Origin: a virus
IMG/VR virus record: IMGVR_UViG_3300010885_072825
Coordinates: 62,001 to 126,000 of that record
Direction: 5' to 3' (one strand)
Length of the DNA stretch: 64,000 nt
The notes beneath the pieces are model-generated. The model was not told the DNA's origin. It ran no database searches and saw only the letters and a program-made list of their open reading frames with translations. Below are positions 14,537-47,800 of this stretch, in pieces; the stretch's first letter is position 1; each line of letters starts with the position of its first letter. Made by a program: the position numbers and the translations under genes.

Positions 14537-15853
14537 TCAATCAAAATCTGCTAGCAGATCAATGTAAGCATATGCCCCAAACGGCGGAACAATACGAGAT
14601 CCATGTCCTCCTGCGATGATCCAAAGAGTGTCACAATAATCGGACGATCCCCAGCCATAATTTGGATATCCATCTGTGAACCAAATTGCTTTCTTTGGCA
14701 AGATTTCATTTTGTTGCCAATATTCCCAAACAGCTTCAAAGCTAGTACCGCCGCCGCCTCGGCATTCATAACTTAGAAACTCTTCTTTGTTTTCATGTGT
14801 AAATTCCTGGTAGTTATGGATGCTAGTATCGAAGCACAAAACACCAATTTTAAACTGAGAATATACTTCCATGATTTCCCAGACTTCAGTCAAAAATTTC
14901 CTAGCAACTTGATCACTGATTGATGCACTCATATCAATTGCAACTTGTACATCAATTGTTTCATCCACATTAAGAACCGGCATGAAAATACTAGTACCCG
15001 TAAACCTGCGATTGGGTTCCATAAAGGTATAATCGTCTGACATACAACTGTTGATAGTTGATTGCAGTAGTTCTCGCCAATTGATTTCTGGTGTTAGAAA
15101 ATTGTTGAGCAGGCGTTGCATGCCAGCGGACATATTACCTGCCGCTGCGGCTGCTGAACTAATCAGCGCTGACTTGATATGTTCTCGAATTTCTTCTAGA
15201 TCAGCATCACTAATTTTAGGCATACTTTGCCCACCCGGATTTTTGCCATCTTCAGGGTCACTGGATCCTGCCATGGGAATATGAACATCCAGAGTCAGCT
15301 GTTTCTTGACCTTTCGTTTCATCAAGTCATCATAAACAGCTTCACTGGTCCATAGGTTGGGTTCACAATAGCGTTTGTCATAGAGTCCAACGCGTTGTTG
15401 ACCTTTGGTGGCAGAAGTTGTATCAACCACGATTTCTGTGGGCATCTTACCAATGCCTTCTTGTTCCAGAAATCCATTGACAATAAAATCCGTTGCCATG
15501 TTCCAATAGTCTGGATCGCGCAGTGAACGACGTCCAAAATGTTCAAATGCACAGTGAAGCAGCTCATGACAAAACACAAACATGAGTTCTGATGGTGCAC
15601 CAGACTGTTCAACGGCTAGTCCTAAAACAAAGTCTGCATTGTAATAGATCTTTCGACCATCAACTGCCATCGTAGGACACCATCCTACATCGGTGGCATC
15701 TACTAGACCAAAATGCATTGCCAGATTTCCCAAGAAGGGGTGTTTCATAAGTAGACTGATTCTGGCCTTAGTAATTTGACGCCGAGCTAGTTCTGACTTC
15801 TGACTTTTTTCAGCAAGTGTCAATTCTTTTGTTTTTGTTACTGCTTTTGCCAT
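14537..15853 (-). CDS. VWA-like metallopeptidase (DUF2201 type), partner of the MoxR ATPase
   Basis: 438 residues. The N-terminal half has FVFCHELLHCAFEH with HELLH at 96-100, a zinc-peptidase-like site. The C-terminal half is a von Willebrand A fold with the MIDAS start VAIDMSASIS and later WFTDGYPNYGWG. This combination is the DUF2201 family, usually encoded next to a MoxR AAA+ ATPase, as here, where the two genes overlap by one base (TAATG). MoxR/VWA pairs are thought to act as chaperones or remodelling machines. The role in phages is unknown. Confidence 0.8.
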   Translation of the reverse strand: MAKAVTKTKELTLAEKSQKSELARRQITKARISLLMKHPFLGNLAMHFGLVDATDVGWCPTMAVDGRKIYYNADFVLGLAVEQSGAPSELMFVFCHELLHCAFEHFGRRSLRDPDYWNMATDFIVNGFLEQEGIGKMPTEIVVDTTSATKGQQRVGLYDKRYCEPNLWTSEAVYDDLMKRKVKKQLTLDVHIPMAGSSDPEDGKNPGGQSMPKISDADLEEIREHIKSALISSAAAAAGNMSAGMQRLLNNFLTPEINWRELLQSTINSCMSDDYTFMEPNRRFTGTSIFMPVLNVDETIDVQVAIDMSASISDQVARKFLTEVWEIMEVYSQFKIGVLCFDTSIHNYQEFTHENKEEFLSYECRGGGGTSFEAVWEYWQQNEILPKKAIWFTDGYPNYGWGSSDYCDTLWIIAGGHGSRIVPPFGAYAYIDLLADFD

Positions 15854-41475: not shown

Positions 41476-41911
41476 TGAACTGAACTCCTACTCTGGCTAG
41501 CTCAGATAGATAAGTGAAGTAAAGTCGTTTGTCAACACCTCCCGCGGGAGGTGTTTTTGGCAATGTCAAAATCTTATAAAGCTTGTCACCGGTGATACCA
41601 TCATAATAAGCGATGATAGATTTCTGTTGCTGAATATAACGTTTGATATCGGCCATGTTGACCATCAAAGTTTTAAAATCATCAACTGACAAAACCACAA
41701 AAGTTGGATTATCAGTGCTTTGGACAGTTTTAGCTTGATCTATAAAAGTAGTCATGTTAGCTGCTGTCACAACTTGCCAGTTCACGTCTGTCAATTGAAT
41801 TGGTTCAGGAGGCGGTGGATGATTAATTACCACAGGTACAGGTTCAGTTGTTACCTTCAATGGGGTGGCACAAGAACTTAATAACAAGCATAATAGGATA
41901 ATTTTTTTCAT
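41423..41911 (-). CDS. lipoprotein, probable o-spanin (Rz1-like)
   Basis: 162 residues. MKKIILLCLLLSSC is a lipoprotein signal with lipobox LSSC (Cys 14), and the mature part is Pro-rich near the start (PVVINHPPPPEPIQL). It overlaps the preceding membrane coiled-coil gene by four bases (ATGA), the usual arrangement of i-spanin and o-spanin, which fuse inner and outer membranes in lysis. At 162 residues it is long for an o-spanin, so an alternative lipoprotein role is possible. Confidence 0.65.
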   Translation of the reverse strand: MKKIILLCLLLSSCATPLKVTTEPVPVVINHPPPPEPIQLTDVNWQVVTAANMTTFIDQAKTVQSTDNPTFVVLSVDDFKTLMVNMADIKRYIQQQKSIIAYYDGITGDKLYKILTLPKTPPAGGVDKRLYFTYLSELARVGVQFSEDSDQRKRPNGVSRPD

Positions 41912-42315
41912 TGTTTGGCCGACACGGTTCTTAAATCATTAAAAGCGGAAATTGAAGCCGCGTTTGCTAGATCACTTGCTGCTTTATTGTCTGTTTTAGA
42001 AACAGAATTAATAGGCAGTTTGTTGATTTTGGTAGTTGTGGTTTTTACTTCAGCTTCAGCCAATTGCTGTTGGTTTTGTAAATCAGTTAACATGCTAGCT
42101 TGTTGAGCTGCTTGCTGTTGTAATGCTGTTATGGTCTTAGTTTGCAAATCGAAACCGGTTTGTAGTTTGGTCTGGTTTTGATTTAGAACTGCTAGGTTAT
42201 GATCTGTTATTTTATAGTAAATGAAACCAGCAACACCCATTCCCAACAATAAGGTAGATAATACCACAATTATTGTATTTTGCGCATTACTAAAAAAAGA
42301 AGTTAAAAATGCCAT
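41908..42315 (-). CDS. probable i-spanin (Rz-like)
   Basis: 135 residues from the ATG at 42315 (ACAGG ribosome site). One N-terminal transmembrane helix (about 13-34, IIVVLSTLLLGMGVAGFIYY) and a long Gln/Ala-rich coiled coil (LQQQAAQQASMLTDLQNQQQ) give the i-spanin layout: inner-membrane anchor with a periplasmic rod. The downstream overlapping lipoprotein supports the pairing. An ATAAATA box lies 25 bases before the start, fitting late lysis expression. Confidence 0.65.
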   Translation of the reverse strand: MAFLTSFFSNAQNTIIVVLSTLLLGMGVAGFIYYKITDHNLAVLNQNQTKLQTGFDLQTKTITALQQQAAQQASMLTDLQNQQQLAEAEVKTTTTKINKLPINSVSKTDNKAASDLANAASISAFNDLRTVSAKQ

Positions 42316-42339
42316 GTGAGCCTGTTTTTGAATCAATTA

Positions 42340-42346
42340 TATTTAT
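42340..42346 (-). promoter_or_regulatory. late promoter box for the spanin pair
   Basis: Minus strand CATAAATATAATTG, 25 bases before the ATG. Confidence 0.5.
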
Positions 42347-42355
42347 GATCAAAAA

Positions 42356-42601
42356 TCAATTCAATTTTTTTATTTCACGATCATAGATATGATTATAAAG
42401 TTCATTGACTTCCAACATTCTAAAATAAGTCTCGGTTGGTAACCCTATTTTCATTTCCAAAAATGATTCCCGGGAAATTTCAGTCACAAGAAATTCACTC
42501 CCACAACTACCATCAACTTCAACAATTGCACCATGGCTTATTCCATTATCGGTAAGATGATCTGAAATCAATTCTTCATCGACATAGATTACTCGAACCA
42601 T
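42356..42601 (-). CDS. small hypothetical protein
   Basis: 81 residues. VRVIYVDEELISDHLTDNGI then a glycine-containing GSCGSEFLVTEI. It starts where the preceding gene stops (no gap). Not recognised. Confidence 0.55.
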   Translation of the reverse strand: MVRVIYVDEELISDHLTDNGISHGAIVEVDGSCGSEFLVTEISRESFLEMKIGLPTETYFRMLEVNELYNHIYDREIKKLN

Positions 42602-42880
42602 TTAAATAGTGTCTTTTTTCAAGGAATCTTTAATAGTCGCGCTTTTTATATGCGCCGTGTTATCTTCATCAATTGTCAAAACTGCTTTTTTAAATTTAAT
42701 AGACCCTTTGGTATGTGAATTATTTGGTGATTCTTTGGTAGACCAACTCATATTTGATTCTATGTGATTGACATAAAATGTTCGTCCAGCCGTTTTTGCT
42801 ACCCAGGGCGGAACTGTTTGATCTTCCAAATGTTTCTTATTGAAATGAATCACTAGATCTCGGCAATATATCTTTTCCAT
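42602..42880 (-). CDS. small hypothetical protein
   Basis: 92 residues. HFNKKHLEDQTVPPWVAKTA and YVNHIESNMSWSTKESPNN suggest a compact DNA- or protein-binding protein, but no family is recognised. It is the first gene of a pair. An AAGGAGAGAAATATG ribosome site precedes it. Confidence 0.55.
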   Translation of the reverse strand: MEKIYCRDLVIHFNKKHLEDQTVPPWVAKTAGRTFYVNHIESNMSWSTKESPNNSHTKGSIKFKKAVLTIDEDNTAHIKSATIKDSLKKDTI

Positions 42881-42916
42881 ATTTCTCTCCTTAATTGGTT
42901 GATTGGTCAGACAGAA

Positions 42917-42948
42917 GGAATCTCAGTCTGAAAACAAACTGAGATTCC
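42917..42948. terminator. hairpin in the gap upstream of the 42.6 kb genes
   Basis: GGAATCTCAGT pairs with ACTGAGATTCC (11-base stem). On the plus strand a T-rich stretch follows (TTTCTATTTTTTT). On the minus strand it would lie in the leader of the gene at 42880. Confidence 0.55.
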
Positions 42949-42988
42949 AAATTTCTATTTTTTTGAAAGATTATCTAACGCATGTTTA

Positions 42989-42996
42989 TATTTATA
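42989..42996 (-). promoter_or_regulatory. perfect TATAAATA box
   Basis: Minus strand TATAAATATAAAC, 109 bases before the ATG at 42880, with the 42917-42948 hairpin between. Confidence 0.45.
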
Positions 42997-43130
42997 GTTG
43001 ATTTTTTATTCGAAATCAAATCAATCTGCTCGACTATGTGATTCTGCTCGGATACCATGCTGAATAAGAACTGCCACATAAGCGTAGGTAGCAAGTTCCT
43101 TGAGTGTCATAGTACCTCAAATCATATAAT

Positions 43131-43150
43131 ATCTTAAACTAGTTTAAGAT
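43131..43150. repeat. perfect 20-base palindrome at the TnpB stop codon
   Basis: ATCTTAAACT followed by AGTTTAAGAT spans the stop codon of tnpB and is 20 bases from the right boundary of the element. It could be the terminal stem recognised by a transposase or part of an omega-RNA. Confidence 0.8.
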
Positions 43151-44344
43151 ATCACTACTATTATGATTGAGTCTTTGTTTTTTTCCAAGAGAACTATTTG
43201 TGCCCTTGTGTGTTTTCTTAGCTAGAGCGCCCAGACCTCTAGCCAAGATATTACGTGCGGCATTAGTATCTGCGTCGCTGTCGTAACCACAATGTACACA
43301 CACGAAATATTCGCCCCTGCGACTATCTGCATGTACATGCCCACATTCGCTACACATCTGAGATGTATAGGCAGGATTTATCCGAAATACATGAACGTCA
43401 TGTTCAGCAGCTAACTCCTCAATCCGGTTGTTGATATAACTTAAACACCATGCATGGTTTTTATATCCCCAACTTTTACCTGTTTTCATACCAGTTAAAT
43501 TTTCGGTAATCAAATAGTCTATTGCATCAAAATTAATGTCGCGTTTCAATGAATAATTAATTTCATTACGTAAAAAATTTCTAGCTCGTTTTTGTGCTTT
43601 ACTACCATGTTTCTTTGAAGCAACAATATCCATGATTTGATCAATTGGCAATCCCCTTTTGTGTGTGGTTTCCATATGCCCATCATCTCTAGCAATTAAC
43701 TTTTTACGACCAATATCAATTGCTTGAATCTTAGTTATGTCATTGCTCAAATTGACTGTTTTGTGAAAATAAAATCCCAATGACCCGTCATTATTCACTC
43801 GTAACGAATTGGTCTTTAAAACAAATCCCCTGTCAATTAATTTTTTCATATGACGCGTTAACACAAGCGGAATATAAAAATTACCCCGCATGAAGGAAGA
43901 TATTTTAATCCAATACTCACAAATCTTAGTATCTTTTGATTTTTCTATTGAAATAAATCTTGAATCCAGTTCAATATTAACTGAGTTAATATCAACTTGC
44001 AATAGACCCGAATTATATTTTGTCAATATCTCTCGTTGATATTTTTTTAAATTCTCAGAATTCCTAGCTAATTTGACTTTAACTGTAATAGATCTAGCTA
44101 TTGCTACTGCTTGTTTGGCTAAAACTTGACTCATCCGAGCAGGAAATGGCAATGCTGCAACTATTTCTTTGGGAAGAAAGTTTGGTATTTGATCAAAATC
44201 ATATATCAACTTGTTGACTAATTTATGTAATTCAAATTTATATAAGTCGAAAGGAGTATTCAAACGTGTTTGTTTCCCTGTATTCGCCAATACGGGATTA
44301 TAATTACTAATGCGGATATTGTTTTTATTGGGTTTCTTCGCCAT
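43139..44344 (-). CDS. tnpB: TnpB-family RNA-guided nuclease (OrfB of IS200/IS605)
   Basis: 401 residues. The RuvC-like catalytic residues appear as Asp in IQAIDIGRKKLI, Glu in YLITENLTGMK and Asp in YDSDADTNAARNIL. The C-terminal zinc finger is C-S-E-C-G followed by C-V-H-C-G. TnpB proteins use an RNA from the element's right end to cut DNA next to a short motif and are relatives of Cas12. The N-terminal wedge/REC part is more divergent than usual, so the fold there is less certain. It lies in a split phage gene. Confidence 0.88.
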   Translation of the reverse strand: MAKKPNKNNIRISNYNPVLANTGKQTRLNTPFDLYKFELHKLVNKLIYDFDQIPNFLPKEIVAALPFPARMSQVLAKQAVAIARSITVKVKLARNSENLKKYQREILTKYNSGLLQVDINSVNIELDSRFISIEKSKDTKICEYWIKISSFMRGNFYIPLVLTRHMKKLIDRGFVLKTNSLRVNNDGSLGFYFHKTVNLSNDITKIQAIDIGRKKLIARDDGHMETTHKRGLPIDQIMDIVASKKHGSKAQKRARNFLRNEINYSLKRDINFDAIDYLITENLTGMKTGKSWGYKNHAWCLSYINNRIEELAAEHDVHVFRINPAYTSQMCSECGHVHADSRRGEYFVCVHCGYDSDADTNAARNILARGLGALAKKTHKGTNSSLGKKQRLNHNSSDILN

Positions 44345-44430
44345 TAGTCAATTCCAAAATTAGTTTTTCTTATACAACCAATTACAAAAAGATGTTTATA
44401 ATTCATCAAAAACTTTATGTTTCCTACTTG

Positions 44431-44438
44431 TATTTATA
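44431..44438 (-). promoter_or_regulatory. TATAAATA box in the left end of the TnpB element
   Basis: Minus strand TATAAATA, 87 bases before the tnpB start. It may be a promoter carried by the element. Confidence 0.4.
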
Positions 44439-44739
44439 CTAGAAATATAGTATTGTTTGCAATATGAATGAAAATAAATAATACTTTGTGTCATTGATCC
44501 ACCTGGATTCCAAACTCGGACGCCGCCTTGATAACTGTCTTTGCGAGCAATTCCAGCTGCCACCAATTCCTTGGCAAACTTGGAATTCGCCGGGCGAATA
44601 ATTGCCCAGGCAAAACCACAATAAAATGGTTCAGGATTCTTGGCGAGATAGTCGGCTTATGCCTTTTGTGCAGCAGTCCAAGCCATATTGTGAATTTCAA
44701 TTGCAGTAGGCATCTTGTTGCTCCAACAAATTATTCCTT

Positions 44740-44768
44740 ATCATATAATTCAAAAACCTGTTTGTCAA
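44740..44768 (-). promoter_or_regulatory. sigma70-type promoter of the broken gene
   Basis: Minus strand TTGACA (44763-44768), 17-base spacer, TATGAT (44740-44745). It precedes the start of the interrupted gene by 27 bases. Confidence 0.6.
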
Positions 44769-44791
44769 CAGTTGATTTATTTCTCAATCCA

Positions 44792-44798
44792 ATAAATA
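44792..44798 (+). promoter_or_regulatory. late promoter box for the HNH gene
   Basis: Plus strand CAATAAATAATTGG, 22 bases before the ATG at 44821. Confidence 0.5.
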
Positions 44799-44820
44799 AT
44801 TGGGAAAATAGAGATCACCC

Positions 44821-45384
44821 ATGTCAACCACACTTCTTATGAACGCTGACTTTTCTCCACTCAGCATAATTCCACTCAGCACAGTATCTTGGAGAGAAGG
44901 CATCAAAATAAGCTTTCTTGATCATGCCAAGACACTTGAGTACTATGACGATTGGTTCGTGCATAGCCCAAGTCGAACCATGCAAGTTCCCAGTGTGATG
45001 ATCAGCCGGACTTTCATCAAGAAGAAGAATTTCATCAGATTCACTCGCCAAAATCTTTTGATACGAGATAATTTCTCTTGCCAGTATTGTGGCACGATTT
45101 TGAACAACAATACACTAACTGTAGATCACGTTATTCCTCGTGTCCGAGGAGGTAAAACTCGCTGGGATAATATTGTCTGTGCATGTAAAAAATGTAACTC
45201 TGAAAAGGGACACAAATCAGTGATGAAACCCATGCAGGCTCCATTCAAACCCAGCTATTATGATTTAGTGGGGAATGCACAGAAGTTACCAATCGTGGTT
45301 CCTGATGCCAAATGGATCCCCTATTTGAATTGGGATCCTGAAATAATCACGGTTAGACCACCAAACAAAAATAATTTCAATTAA
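44821..45384 (+). CDS. HNH endonuclease
   Basis: 187 residues. The HNH/McrA-type centre CQYCG-x-x-x-x-x-x-x-LTVDHVIPRVRGGKTRWDNI, with CKKCNSEKG, carries the zinc-binding cysteines and the catalytic His of TVDHVIPR. The N-terminal 80 residues (LLMNADFSPLSIIPLSTVSW) are the type found in phage and bacterial HNH proteins that act as host-type nucleases. It may be a homing endonuclease or a T4-like DNA-metabolism enzyme. It has its own late-type promoter. Confidence 0.82.
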   Translation: MSTTLLMNADFSPLSIIPLSTVSWREGIKISFLDHAKTLEYYDDWFVHSPSRTMQVPSVMISRTFIKKKNFIRFTRQNLLIRDNFSCQYCGTILNNNTLTVDHVIPRVRGGKTRWDNIVCACKKCNSEKGHKSVMKPMQAPFKPSYYDLVGNAQKLPIVVPDAKWIPYLNWDPEIITVRPPNKNNFN

Positions 45385-45409
45385 ATTATTGACTTGGTCT
45401 AGATCAGTC

Positions 45410-45416
45410 ATAAATA
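45410..45416 (+). promoter_or_regulatory. late promoter box
   Basis: Plus strand CATAAATAATTTG, 24 bases before the ATG at 45441; the leader contains AAGGAG. Confidence 0.55.
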
Positions 45417-45440
45417 ATTTGACTTATTTAAGGAGACTTT

Positions 45441-45641
45441 ATGACTGAACAAAACAATACTGATCACTTGATTACACTTGTTGATCTAAAGAATATCATG
45501 ACTATAATTGATCTCGCTAGTACTCGAGGTGCATTCAAAGCTCTTGAACTTCAGCCCGTTGGTGAATTGTATAATAAAATAGACCGTTTTATACAAATCG
45601 CTAATTCTGCCAGTGAATCAAAATCTGAAACCACAACCTAA
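45441..45641 (+). CDS. small conserved phage protein
   Basis: 66 residues. LVDLKNIMTIIDLASTRGAF then KALELQPVGELYNKIDRFI is a helical pattern seen in small proteins of T4-like marine phages. TTAAGGAGACTTT precedes the ATG. No function is known. Confidence 0.6.
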   Translation: MTEQNNTDHLITLVDLKNIMTIIDLASTRGAFKALELQPVGELYNKIDRFIQIANSASESKSETTT

Positions 45642-45650
45642 AAGGAACTC

Positions 45651-46412
45651 ATGACAATTACCACTTTACATGGAATGACCAAACACGTTGGGGTCATTAA
45701 TAATACTGGAAAAAACGTGGCCGTAATTTATATGCAACTCCCTGATGATCCAGGGCATGCACTGGTTCTTGATACGGATGCACTACCCGATGAATTCAAC
45801 GATGTACTTCGTCGAATTATTGATAGCCAAGATGGTCAGGATTCAAAAAATCTTGGAGATGTGTTGGGACGTAAAATGTCGCCTGATGGCAGCAATCTAA
45901 CACTGCTACAAAAATTTCATGCAGCTGGTCGACTGGAACGCAAACCAATTGAACAAATTACTATGACTCCGCGCCGTGGTGTTAATTGGCCACTAAAAGA
46001 TATTTTAGATGCCATGGCTCAACCTGAAGCAGAAATCATTCCTGGATTTAATGATTTGGATCCAGAAACCCGAGCTGAAATTGCCGCTAATCTTGGTAAG
46101 TTCAACATGCATGAAGTAAATCATGAAGCTGAATCAACAAGCTTAAATGCAAGTCAAGCCGCTGAACTTTTGGAAATGGCAAAGATGTTGGAAGCTGATG
46201 CTCATAACAAAAGAATTCAAGCATACCGCATGGATCCTTCACTGAAGCCTGCTGAAAAGAAAGCTATTGCTGAAAAGAAGGCAATCGAAGCAGAAGCACC
46301 AGCACCACAAAAAATGGTACGTATTGCCAAGACAACTAAAACCAAATCAACTGAACTTCATGCCTCAGCTGATCCCAAGCCACGTGCTAACACGGTTCGC
46401 AAAACCAAATAA
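45651..46412 (+). CDS. conserved phage protein of unknown function
   Basis: 253 residues. The N-terminal half (TKHVGVINNTGKNVAVIYMQ, GHALVLDTDALPDEFNDVLR) is a compact domain I associate with T4-like phage genomes, but I cannot name it. The C-terminal third is Ala/Lys/Glu-rich and likely disordered (KPAEKKAIAEKKAIEAEAPA). It ends at a strong terminator. It is second in a late two-gene operon, so a virion or assembly role is plausible. Confidence 0.6.
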   Translation: MTITTLHGMTKHVGVINNTGKNVAVIYMQLPDDPGHALVLDTDALPDEFNDVLRRIIDSQDGQDSKNLGDVLGRKMSPDGSNLTLLQKFHAAGRLERKPIEQITMTPRRGVNWPLKDILDAMAQPEAEIIPGFNDLDPETRAEIAANLGKFNMHEVNHEAESTSLNASQAAELLEMAKMLEADAHNKRIQAYRMDPSLKPAEKKAIAEKKAIEAEAPAPQKMVRIAKTTKTKSTELHASADPKPRANTVRKTK

Positions 46413-46425
46413 ACTTCATTTAATT

Positions 46426-46455
46426 AAATGACCAATGATTCTTCATTGGTCATTT
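46426..46455 (+). terminator. intrinsic terminator
   Basis: AAATGACCAATGA pairs with TCATTGGTCATTT (13-base stem, TTCT loop), with T-rich continuation. It ends the plus-strand unit and also faces the convergent minus-strand gene at 46462. Confidence 0.85.
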
Positions 46456-46461
46456 TTATGA

Positions 46462-46935
46462 TTAATTGTCAAACTCGGATTCATCAGGTAATTCAATTGG
46501 TTGAATATAGAATCGACCAAAATGTTCATCTGCAATGTCACCAATTATTTCATAATTTATTTTTTTCAATTTAGGAGCAAGATATTGTGCTAGTGAATCA
46601 TAGATGCCAATATGATTACCATCAGCATTAATTTGTATTTGCTTGGGTTTGACTTTGATGATAAAAGAATAAATTCCAGAAACAATTTTTGAAAAAACAG
46701 TGAATGCTTTTCTTCCGGCTAATGAATTGATACTGGTATCTCGAATCGATCTACCCTGATACATTCTATCTGCCCAAAATGCAAAAAACCAAATCGATTG
46801 ACTTGGCCTTGCTCTGTCTTTTTGAAATGCTGCTTGATAAGTGATATTGTCTAATTCGAAAGAAAAGTGATAACGATCTTCAGAATGTTTCACCAATTCA
46901 ATGGCATTGATTTCAAATAATTCATATAGTTTCAT
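46462..46935 (-). CDS. unknown protein, possible targeting leader
   Basis: 157 residues. The start MKLYELFEINAIE resembles the short N-terminal leaders of other late proteins here. The body (FELDNITYQAAFQKDRARPS, YSFIIKVKPKQIQINADGNH) is an alpha/beta domain with no recognised family. It is co-directional with thyA, ten bases downstream of it. Confidence 0.55.
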   Translation of the reverse strand: MKLYELFEINAIELVKHSEDRYHFSFELDNITYQAAFQKDRARPSQSIWFFAFWADRMYQGRSIRDTSINSLAGRKAFTVFSKIVSGIYSFIIKVKPKQIQINADGNHIGIYDSLAQYLAPKLKKINYEIIGDIADEHFGRFYIQPIELPDESEFDN

Positions 46936-46945
46936 CTGATATTTA

Positions 46946-47800
46946 TCAGACGGCCATGGGCGCTGATATGGCTGGGTGATGTTGATAATTTAAAATTTTG
47001 ATATCACACATTTTAAAATCATCTATGTCTTTTATGTCGGGATTGAGCCAAAGTTGTGGTAATGGATAGGGTTCTCTAGTCAGTTGTTCTCGAACTTGTT
47101 CAATATGATTCTGATATATATGTTCATCTCCCACAGACACTATTAATTCACCCACAGATAAATTACATACTTGAGCAATCATATGGGTAAGCAAAGCATA
47201 TGATGCATAATTATAGCTTGCGCCTAAAAAGCCATCTTGACTTCTCTGCGTCATCATGCAGCTCAATTTACCATTAGCAACCCACATTTGGAACATGGCA
47301 TGGCACGGAGGGAGTGCCATTTCTTCTATCTCACCGGGATTATAAGCCACTACCATATGACGACGACTTGCGGGATCTTTTTTAATACCATCAATCAAAT
47401 TTTTAATTTGATCGATTCGTTCTTGACGATAATTAAACCATTGTCTCCACTGAACCGGATATATACGCCCAGTATCACCATCAAATCTGGCGTTGGGTTT
47501 CCAATAATCGGCTTGTGCGTTTGCTGTCCAAATAGTGGTTTTATTGGTTAGTTCTTGTCTAGGCTTTTCATAACGGATTTCTGCCAATCGTCGTTCGTCT
47601 GAACTACCTTCTAAAAACCAAAGTAGCTCACTTACAATACTACCCCACAACATTTTCTTTGTAGTAACTAGTGGGAAACCCTCTGATAAATCAAATCGAA
47701 TTTGTCTACCAAATACCGATAGTGTACCAACCCCAGTTCTATCCATACGATAGACACCATTATCCAATATATATTTGAGCTCATCGTGATATTGTTTCAT
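46946..47800 (-). CDS. thyA: thymidylate synthase (ThyA)
   Basis: 284 residues. RTGVGTLSVFGRQIRFDLSE is the phosphate/folate entry. ELLWFLEGSSDERRL follows. LPPCHAMFQMWV carries the catalytic Cys. TQRSQDGFLGASYNYASYAL and the C-terminal ISAPMAV tail are all standard. It methylates dUMP to dTMP using methylene-tetrahydrofolate. It overlaps the DHFR gene by 20 bases, and DHFR regenerates the folate. It is slightly longer than E. coli ThyA (264). Confidence 0.95.
   Translation of the reverse strand: MKQYHDELKYILDNGVYRMDRTGVGTLSVFGRQIRFDLSEGFPLVTTKKMLWGSIVSELLWFLEGSSDERRLAEIRYEKPRQELTNKTTIWTANAQADYWKPNARFDGDTGRIYPVQWRQWFNYRQERIDQIKNLIDGIKKDPASRRHMVVAYNPGEIEEMALPPCHAMFQMWVANGKLSCMMTQRSQDGFLGASYNYASYALLTHMIAQVCNLSVGELIVSVGDEHIYQNHIEQVREQLTREPYPLPQLWLNPDIKDIDDFKMCDIKILNYQHHPAISAPMAV

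What the first reader, a model, noticed from the sequence alone, without database searches (positions are those of the whole stretch)
43021..44713. TnpB-only element inserted in a conserved phage gene, with the empty site readable
The broken gene's two halves join in frame at the shared ATGACAC, giving a plausible intact protein. This defines the element ends (43104-43111 and 44488-44494) and predicts the guide: the roughly 16-20 bases just beyond the right end on the tnpB strand, 43084-43103 (or 43091-43110 if the repeat is included), and a target-adjacent motif within or just before ATGACAC. No TnpA is present, so the element may spread by RNA-guided homing in coinfection.
Basis: partly seen in the sequence, partly recalled or inferred. 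Interest (0 to 1): 0.85.

Follow-up and report, generated by a model that had tools for sequence, protein, structure and literature searches.

The report
Transposase-less TnpB element in phage gene
A large bacterial virus carries a gene for an RNA-guided DNA cutter (TnpB) that has landed inside another virus gene; the joint can be read to within a few bases and suggests what the cutter would aim at, but its activity and spread are not shown.

Summary
Real, but the boundaries were misread. An intact tnpB (43139-44344, minus) splits a phage gene of family phrog_22149; in 81 of 81 homologue loci the halves are contiguous. ATGACAC is not an element end: both copies are host-gene sequence, since homologues read TQSMDxKE and the intact gene read MTQS-MTLKE. 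Element 43109-44480 (1372 bp), likely guide 43108-43089, likely target-adjacent motif AGTAT (44485-44481). The same junction (AGTAT / ACTAT) is seen directly between Thermus phages TMA (element) and phiYS40 (empty). The TnpB lies in a phage-rich clade whose complete members carry an IS607-type serine transposase; this record has none. The host gene also has an in-frame TAA upstream, so the joined protein is not intact. RNA-guided homing is plausible, untested. In four related phage loci a diverged copy of the host-gene end stands left of tnpB while its remnant on the right starts the guide: a possible rescue arrangement. The element itself: new member of a known kind.

The parts
43109..44480 (-). 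TnpB element, 1372 bp (cut ambiguous within the shared TAT, up to 43112-44483)
   Evidence: best of 597 joints; right-end motif of the clade; length
43139..44344 (-). tnpB, 401 aa, RuvC D210/E281/D357-D359 and four zinc-finger cysteines intact
44345..44480 (-). left end, 136 bp, no transposase remnant found
43116..43171 (-). right-end hairpin overlapping the tnpB 3' end; candidate guide-RNA scaffold (z -2.32 for the 151-nt stretch around it)
43109..43116 (-). right-end terminus GGTACTAT, the clade's AACTAT-like terminal motif
43089..43108 (-). predicted guide GACACTCAAGGAACTTGCTA (host-gene sequence)
   Evidence: inference from the joint
44481..44485 (-). predicted target-adjacent motif AGTAT (host-gene sequence)
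   Evidence: same motif in TMA/phiYS40
44481..44713 (-). 5' part of the interrupted phrog_22149 gene, with in-frame TAA at 44659-44657
43021..43108 (-). 3' part of the interrupted gene, ends SRAD-stop
44488..44494 (-). left ATGACAC: host-gene sequence, not an element end
43104..43110 (-). right ATGACAC: host-gene sequence apart from the AT shared at the joint

Best explanation
A derived element of the IS607-like TnpB lineage common in large phages. Shown: an intact TnpB, no serine or Y1 transposase in this record, insertion between AGTAT and GACACTC in a phage gene, right end GGTACTAT. Inferred: it first arrived by the dinucleotide recombination of an IS607-type serine transposase (its own, since lost, or one acting in trans), leaving no duplication beyond the shared TA(T). 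The 3' end of the tnpB transcript folds into the hairpin and runs on into the host gene, giving the guide GACACTCAAGGAACTTGC... The protein-RNA complex cuts uninterrupted alleles that carry RRTAT plus the guide match in coinfecting sister phages, and repair from the occupied copy spreads the element (RNA-guided homing). The resident junction is spared because its -4 base is C (ACTAT), not a purine. The host gene is dispensable: it is broken by the insertion and by a nonsense codon.
For: Joint. Lineage: the tree pairs the window TnpB with L191 (100/100) inside a 66-row group (100/99) that holds all TnpA-bearing rows (15 full, 4 stubs); IS607-type TnpA was found at 30 of 121 viral loci (some share a contig) and 2 of 80 cellular loci. 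Right end: [AGT]AC[TC][AG]T near the tnpB 3' end in 32 of 65 other distinct viral relatives against 17% in shuffles; copies with different flanks end at the same motif (L194, L197, L204, L208 AACTRT; L273-L276, L281 GACTGT). Directly observed empty site: phiYS40 CGAGTATTTCAATG against TMA left CGAGTAT and right GGGGGACTAT|TTCAATG. Active-site residues intact. The only site in the record within 3 mismatches of TAT plus guide is the element's own junction, one mismatch off RRTAT-guide. tnpB stays open over 401 codons while the host gene has gained a stop.
Against: No expression, RNA or cleavage data. No close relative with an empty allele was found, so the target in its own species is inferred. 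Only 2 of 52 distinct homologous sites have RRTAT, so distant phages could not be homed into. The TnpB is divergent: 62.9 bits against the NCBIfam guided_TnpB cut-off of 100, and its nearest relative L191 lacks the acidic residues at 357 and 359. YS40_Isch's joint does not show RRTAT, and five GACTGT-ended copies do not share the second base of the core with the AATAT seen at left in three of them.
Confidence: 0.62

Rival explanations
1. A relic: the element jumped once, its TnpB no longer cuts anything of note, and it is decaying with its host gene.
For: No transposase; host gene doubly broken; no close relative found; nearest relative L191 has lost third-motif acidic residues.
Against: tnpB is open over 401 codons with all catalytic residues, while the host gene already has a stop; right end and hairpin are kept.
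Confidence: 0.22
2. A non-autonomous IS607 derivative that still moves with a serine transposase supplied in trans by a coinfecting phage or the host; TnpB only guards against loss.
For: L194 and L208, nearly identical TnpBs in one contig, differ in that only L208 has TnpA; one TnpB type sits at several sites in two contigs (L273-L276, L281).
Against: No second copy of this element in the record; no transposase in the record.
Confidence: 0.11
3. TnpB serves the phage as an RNA-guided regulator or weapon against competitors (TldR-like or Cas12f-like), rather than serving itself.
For: Best fold matches are Cas12f; phage TldR regulators exist (PMC13418256, start of abstract in listing).
Against: Catalytic residues intact; no CRISPR-like array in 41500-47000; the predicted guide matches its own insertion site, as in ordinary TnpB elements.
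Confidence: 0.04
4. A self-splicing intron or IStron that restores the host mRNA.
For: In-frame joint of the two exons.
Against: No Rfam intron match in the window; the stop at codon 19 would remain after splicing.
Confidence: 0.01

Closest known systems
IS607 element of Thermus phage TMA (TMA_131/TMA_132), empty site in phiYS40
   Same: same junction AGTAT / ACTAT, TnpB in the same broad clade, phage genome
   Different: TMA has a full serine transposase; the TnpBs are only about 25% identical
solo tnpB of Thermus phage YS40_Isch (annotated IS607 family transposase ISCARN1)
   Same: phage tnpB left with a 35-aa stub of TnpA; right end GGGGGACTA
   Different: lies between genes; its left joint does not show RRTAT
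IS607 TnpBs ISXfa1 and ISFba1 (PMC10711439 and PMC11061315, passages read)
   Same: RNA-guided nuclease at the right end of an IS607 element; ends share a dinucleotide and the fixed right-flanking base is part of the scaffold (ISXfa1)
   Different: there a GG core with TAM GGG, or AGGAG/GAGGG, and TnpA present; here a TA-like core, predicted RRTAT, no TnpA
TnpB gene drive of IS200/IS605 elements in plasmids (PMC11870625, abstract and outline read)
   Same: cutting of the unoccupied allele would bias inheritance
   Different: Y1-transposase family, plasmids, shown by experiment
phage homing endonuclease genes (PMC10448857, search listing only)
   Same: selfish spread into a site of related phages
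   Different: target read by the protein, not by an RNA guide

Membership tests
TnpB (RNA-guided nuclease) | RuvC acidic residues and C4 zinc finger | tested here: met
   D210, E281, D357/D359 and C331/C334/C349/C352; which Asp is catalytic in the third motif is recalled, both are present
TnpB (RNA-guided nuclease) | TnpB/Cas12f fold | tested here: met
   8j12 E 5.4e-16; ISFba1 TnpB 8iaz E 2.0e-11; ISDra2-type TnpB 8h1j E 2.4e-10
TnpB (RNA-guided nuclease) | curated family cut-offs | tested here: inconclusive
   Pfam PF07282 met, 68.5 over 26.3; NCBIfam guided_TnpB not met, 62.9 under 100
TnpB (RNA-guided nuclease) | guide RNA from the right end and RNA-guided cleavage | not testable with these tools
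   only a hairpin and the joint are seen
IS607 family | serine-recombinase TnpA | tested here: not met
   PF00239 absent in the record, no remnant in the left end; so described as IS607-like lineage, not filed as an IS607 element
IS607 family | TnpB related to TnpBs that sit beside serine TnpA | tested here: met
   tree; long branch, place inside the group unresolved
IS607 family | no target duplication; short matching core at both ends | tested here: met
   only TAT shared at the best joint
IS200/IS605 family | Y1 TnpA | tested here: not met
   PF01797 absent in the record and in 12 of 12 relatives' contigs
Group I/II intron or IStron | intron RNA fold | tested here: not met
   0 Rfam matches at gathering score in the window
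CRISPR-Cas12f | CRISPR array nearby | tested here: not met
   no array in 41500-47000; the rest of the record was not scanned

The most novel reading that the evidence does not exclude
Large phages carry a lineage of IS607-derived TnpB genes that shed the transposase again and again and live on as RNA-guided homing genes. Some pay for their stay by inserting near a gene's 3' end and holding a diverged copy of that end on the left (gene kept whole, first guide bases mismatched, so immune to the element's own cutter), while the remnant on the right supplies the guide. Four relatives show this arrangement: L094, L199, L091, L093. The window element would be the unrescued, gene-breaking form.
Probability: 0.35. 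Interest if true: 0.8.

Novelty: new member of a known kind. Interest (0 to 1): 0.52.

Why it matters
If right, the guide and target of a phage TnpB can be read from a single genome, and a cultured pair (Thermus phages TMA and phiYS40) has the same junction and so allows a direct test of RNA-guided homing between phages. The relatives with a diverged gene end on the left would be a natural counterpart of a recoded-rescue gene drive.

Tried and rejected
Rejected: ATGACAC as terminal repeat. Rejected: IS200/IS605 reading, since no Y1 transposase was found in the record or in 12 of 12 relatives' contigs. Rejected: intron (and the TAA). Rejected: CRISPR-Cas12f locus.

Led nowhere: single-protein searches of viral contigs for close relatives of the host gene and of the TnpB; near DNA matches among phage records; a near-identical contig found through the tail sheath (L256's contig, 6717 bases) has no match to phrog_22149; a last scan with P0001 and L191 gave only L191 and L294; plasmids gave only distant matches. 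Left ends did not align well enough for an independent left boundary.

The protein-level search for flank duplication is noisy: at score 70 or more it gave 2 of 64 distinct viral and 7 of 62 distinct cellular TnpB ORFs. Six of the 7 cellular ones look like GC-rich chance matches and one (L161) is an exact 16-residue repeat. L091 and L093 are under that score and rest on short DNA repeats and on where the upstream frames end. An earlier run on 58 ORFs with cross-locus pairs as control had a control maximum of 67.

Full report
What is there. The window is bases 62001-126000 of a 139,590-base virus record with tail sheath, large terminase and other phage genes. On the minus strand lies tnpB, 43139-44344, 401 aa. 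It passes the cut-off of Pfam PF07282 but not that of NCBIfam guided_TnpB (62.9 against 100). It keeps D210, E281, D357, D359 and four zinc-finger cysteines. Its AlphaFold model (mean pLDDT 87.2, pTM 0.78) matches Cas12f and TnpB structures (8j12 E 5.4e-16; ISFba1 TnpB 8iaz E 2.0e-11; TnpB 8h1j E 2.4e-10).

The interrupted gene. A two-sequence profile found homologues in IMG/VR (207 confirmed, the best 80 kept). These 80 and Pelagibacter phage HTVC026P were examined: in 81 of 81 loci the protein runs through the joint. The family has no known function. No other copy was found in the record.

The joint. Homologues read TQSMDxKE; QSM is invariant in 60 of 60 distinct homologues. The window's left half reads GGSMTQS before it departs, the right half MTLKE. 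So the intact gene contained ATGACACAAAGTATGACACTC, with both ATGACAC copies inside it. The corrected joint scores 55.7 bits against 43.2. The element is 43109-44480, 1372 bp. The 5' half also has TAA at codon 19, where 60 of 60 homologues have E, V, Q, I, A or L. The gene is broken twice.

Independent support for the right end. Right ends in the clade finish in AACTAT, AACTGT or GACTGT followed by unrelated sequence: near-identical tnpB copies L194, L197, L204 and L208 end AACTRT; the copies L273-L276 and L281 in two contigs end GACTGT. The pattern [AGT]AC[TC][AG]T close after the tnpB stop is present in 33 of 66 distinct viral 3' ends, window included, against 17% in shuffles; in some of them (for instance L091) the first such match is not the joint that other evidence shows. 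A stricter pattern, RACYRT, gave 27 of 64 distinct viral ORFs near the stop against 6 of 64 further downstream, and 6 and 2 of 62 in cellular loci. The window has GGTACTAT ending at 43109, 30 nt after the stop, preceded by the hairpin 43171-43116.

An empty site seen directly. Thermus phage TMA carries a full IS607 element with a TnpB of the same broad clade; phiYS40, 97.5-98.8% identical in the flanks, lacks it. The empty site reads CTACGAGTATTTCAATG; TMA has CTACGAGTAT on the left and GGGGGACTAT|TTCAATG on the right: the AGTAT / ACTAT junction of the window. YS40_Isch, whose tnpB keeps only a 35-aa TnpA stub, ends GGGGGACTA, but its left flank is changed and RRTAT is not seen.

Lineage. Viral relatives match better than cellular ones: best viral 7e-67 (L191), best cellular 1e-30 (L114); these E-values are relative to each set of candidates. 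In a 77-row tree the window TnpB and L191 pair (100/100) inside a 66-row group (100/99) with all rows that have an IS607-type TnpA (15 full, 4 stubs); its exact place is open and its branch long. IS607-type TnpA lies at 30 of 121 viral and 2 of 80 cellular loci (some loci share a contig). Of 12 relatives' contigs none has a Y1 transposase and 1 a serine recombinase by PF00239. The window's own record has neither, nor a TnpA remnant in the left end. Published IS607 elements insert through a matching dinucleotide, and the fixed right-flanking base is part of the guide scaffold (PMC10711439, passages; PMC4058570, passages). TA and the following T would play these parts here (inference); copies ending in GT fit this less well.

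How it would work. The tnpB transcript would run through the hairpin into the host gene; the guide would be GACACTCAAGGAACTTGCTA (43108-43089), the TAM RRTAT. RRTAT stands at the joint in the window, TMA, L199, L091, L094 and L093, and not in YS40_Isch, so in 6 of 7 joints read; four of the six were placed by eye within a few bases. In the whole record the only site within 3 mismatches is the element's own junction, which differs from RRTAT-guide by one base, C at -4; the element's safety would rest on that base. Homing follows by analogy with the gene drive shown for IS200/IS605 elements in plasmids (PMC11870625, abstract). At the same site 2 of 52 distinct homologous sequences have RRTAT, so spread would be confined to close kin.

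A wider pattern. In four relatives the sequence that starts the guide also stands left of tnpB as the end of a host gene: L199 (SMLWKHKKDPEKLRQ.. and TIIWKNRKDPEKLRQ..), L094 (NMDINNTNDYLILDC.. and VDINNTNDYLILDC..), L091 (GMLSNNREE and MKSNNREE), L093 (YNLGKYHKKVEN and HNLGKYHKKSEN). The left copies keep RRTAT but mismatch the guide in its first ten bases (4, 2, 2 and 4 mismatches) and in bases 11-20 (3, 3, 0, 0). This looks like a rescued gene end protected from the element's own cutter. It is 4 cases among 64 distinct viral TnpB ORFs, two of them short; tandem gene duplication is not excluded. The window element has nothing of the kind.

In print. Searches of the open-access PMC library listed no paper that I recognised as describing TnpB homing genes of phages or diverged gene ends beside tnpB. 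Of the six phrases only 'phage-encoded TnpB' was found, in one paper (PMC11437467, passages: Thermus phages with tnpB beside CRISPR-like arrays). Subscription papers and most preprints are not held. Verdict: a real, well-bounded, transposase-less TnpB element, known in kind; the homing and rescue readings are worth testing.

Noticed in passing
G000:C1:9347-10585 (outside the window; locus L108): A second tnpB of another, IS200/IS605 type (NCBIfam IS200_TnpB 322.9 bits, PF01385) beside a gene with DUF2828/DUF7788.
   Followed up: partly
L191:2980-4269: The nearest relative of the window TnpB has H and G at the two conserved third-motif Asp positions and its stop overlaps the start of a gene that looks like a clamp loader (by eye, no search); perhaps nuclease-dead.
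   Followed up: partly
L194, L197, L204 (about 2804-2998): Where the near-identical copy L208 has a TnpA, these copies have a small ORF instead; its family is unknown.
   Followed up: partly
L094, L199, L091, L093: Diverged copies of a host-gene end left of tnpB and a remnant on the right that begins the guide.
   Followed up: partly
window 44821-45384 (+): HNH endonuclease gene beside the interrupted gene on the other strand (PF14279, PF01844); possibly another homing gene.
   Followed up: no
window 14537-15853 (-): DUF2201 putative metallopeptidase/VWA-like protein, whose PHROG is named HNH endonuclease.
   Followed up: no
L161: A cellular TnpB locus with an exact 16-residue repeat on both sides of tnpB.
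   Followed up: no
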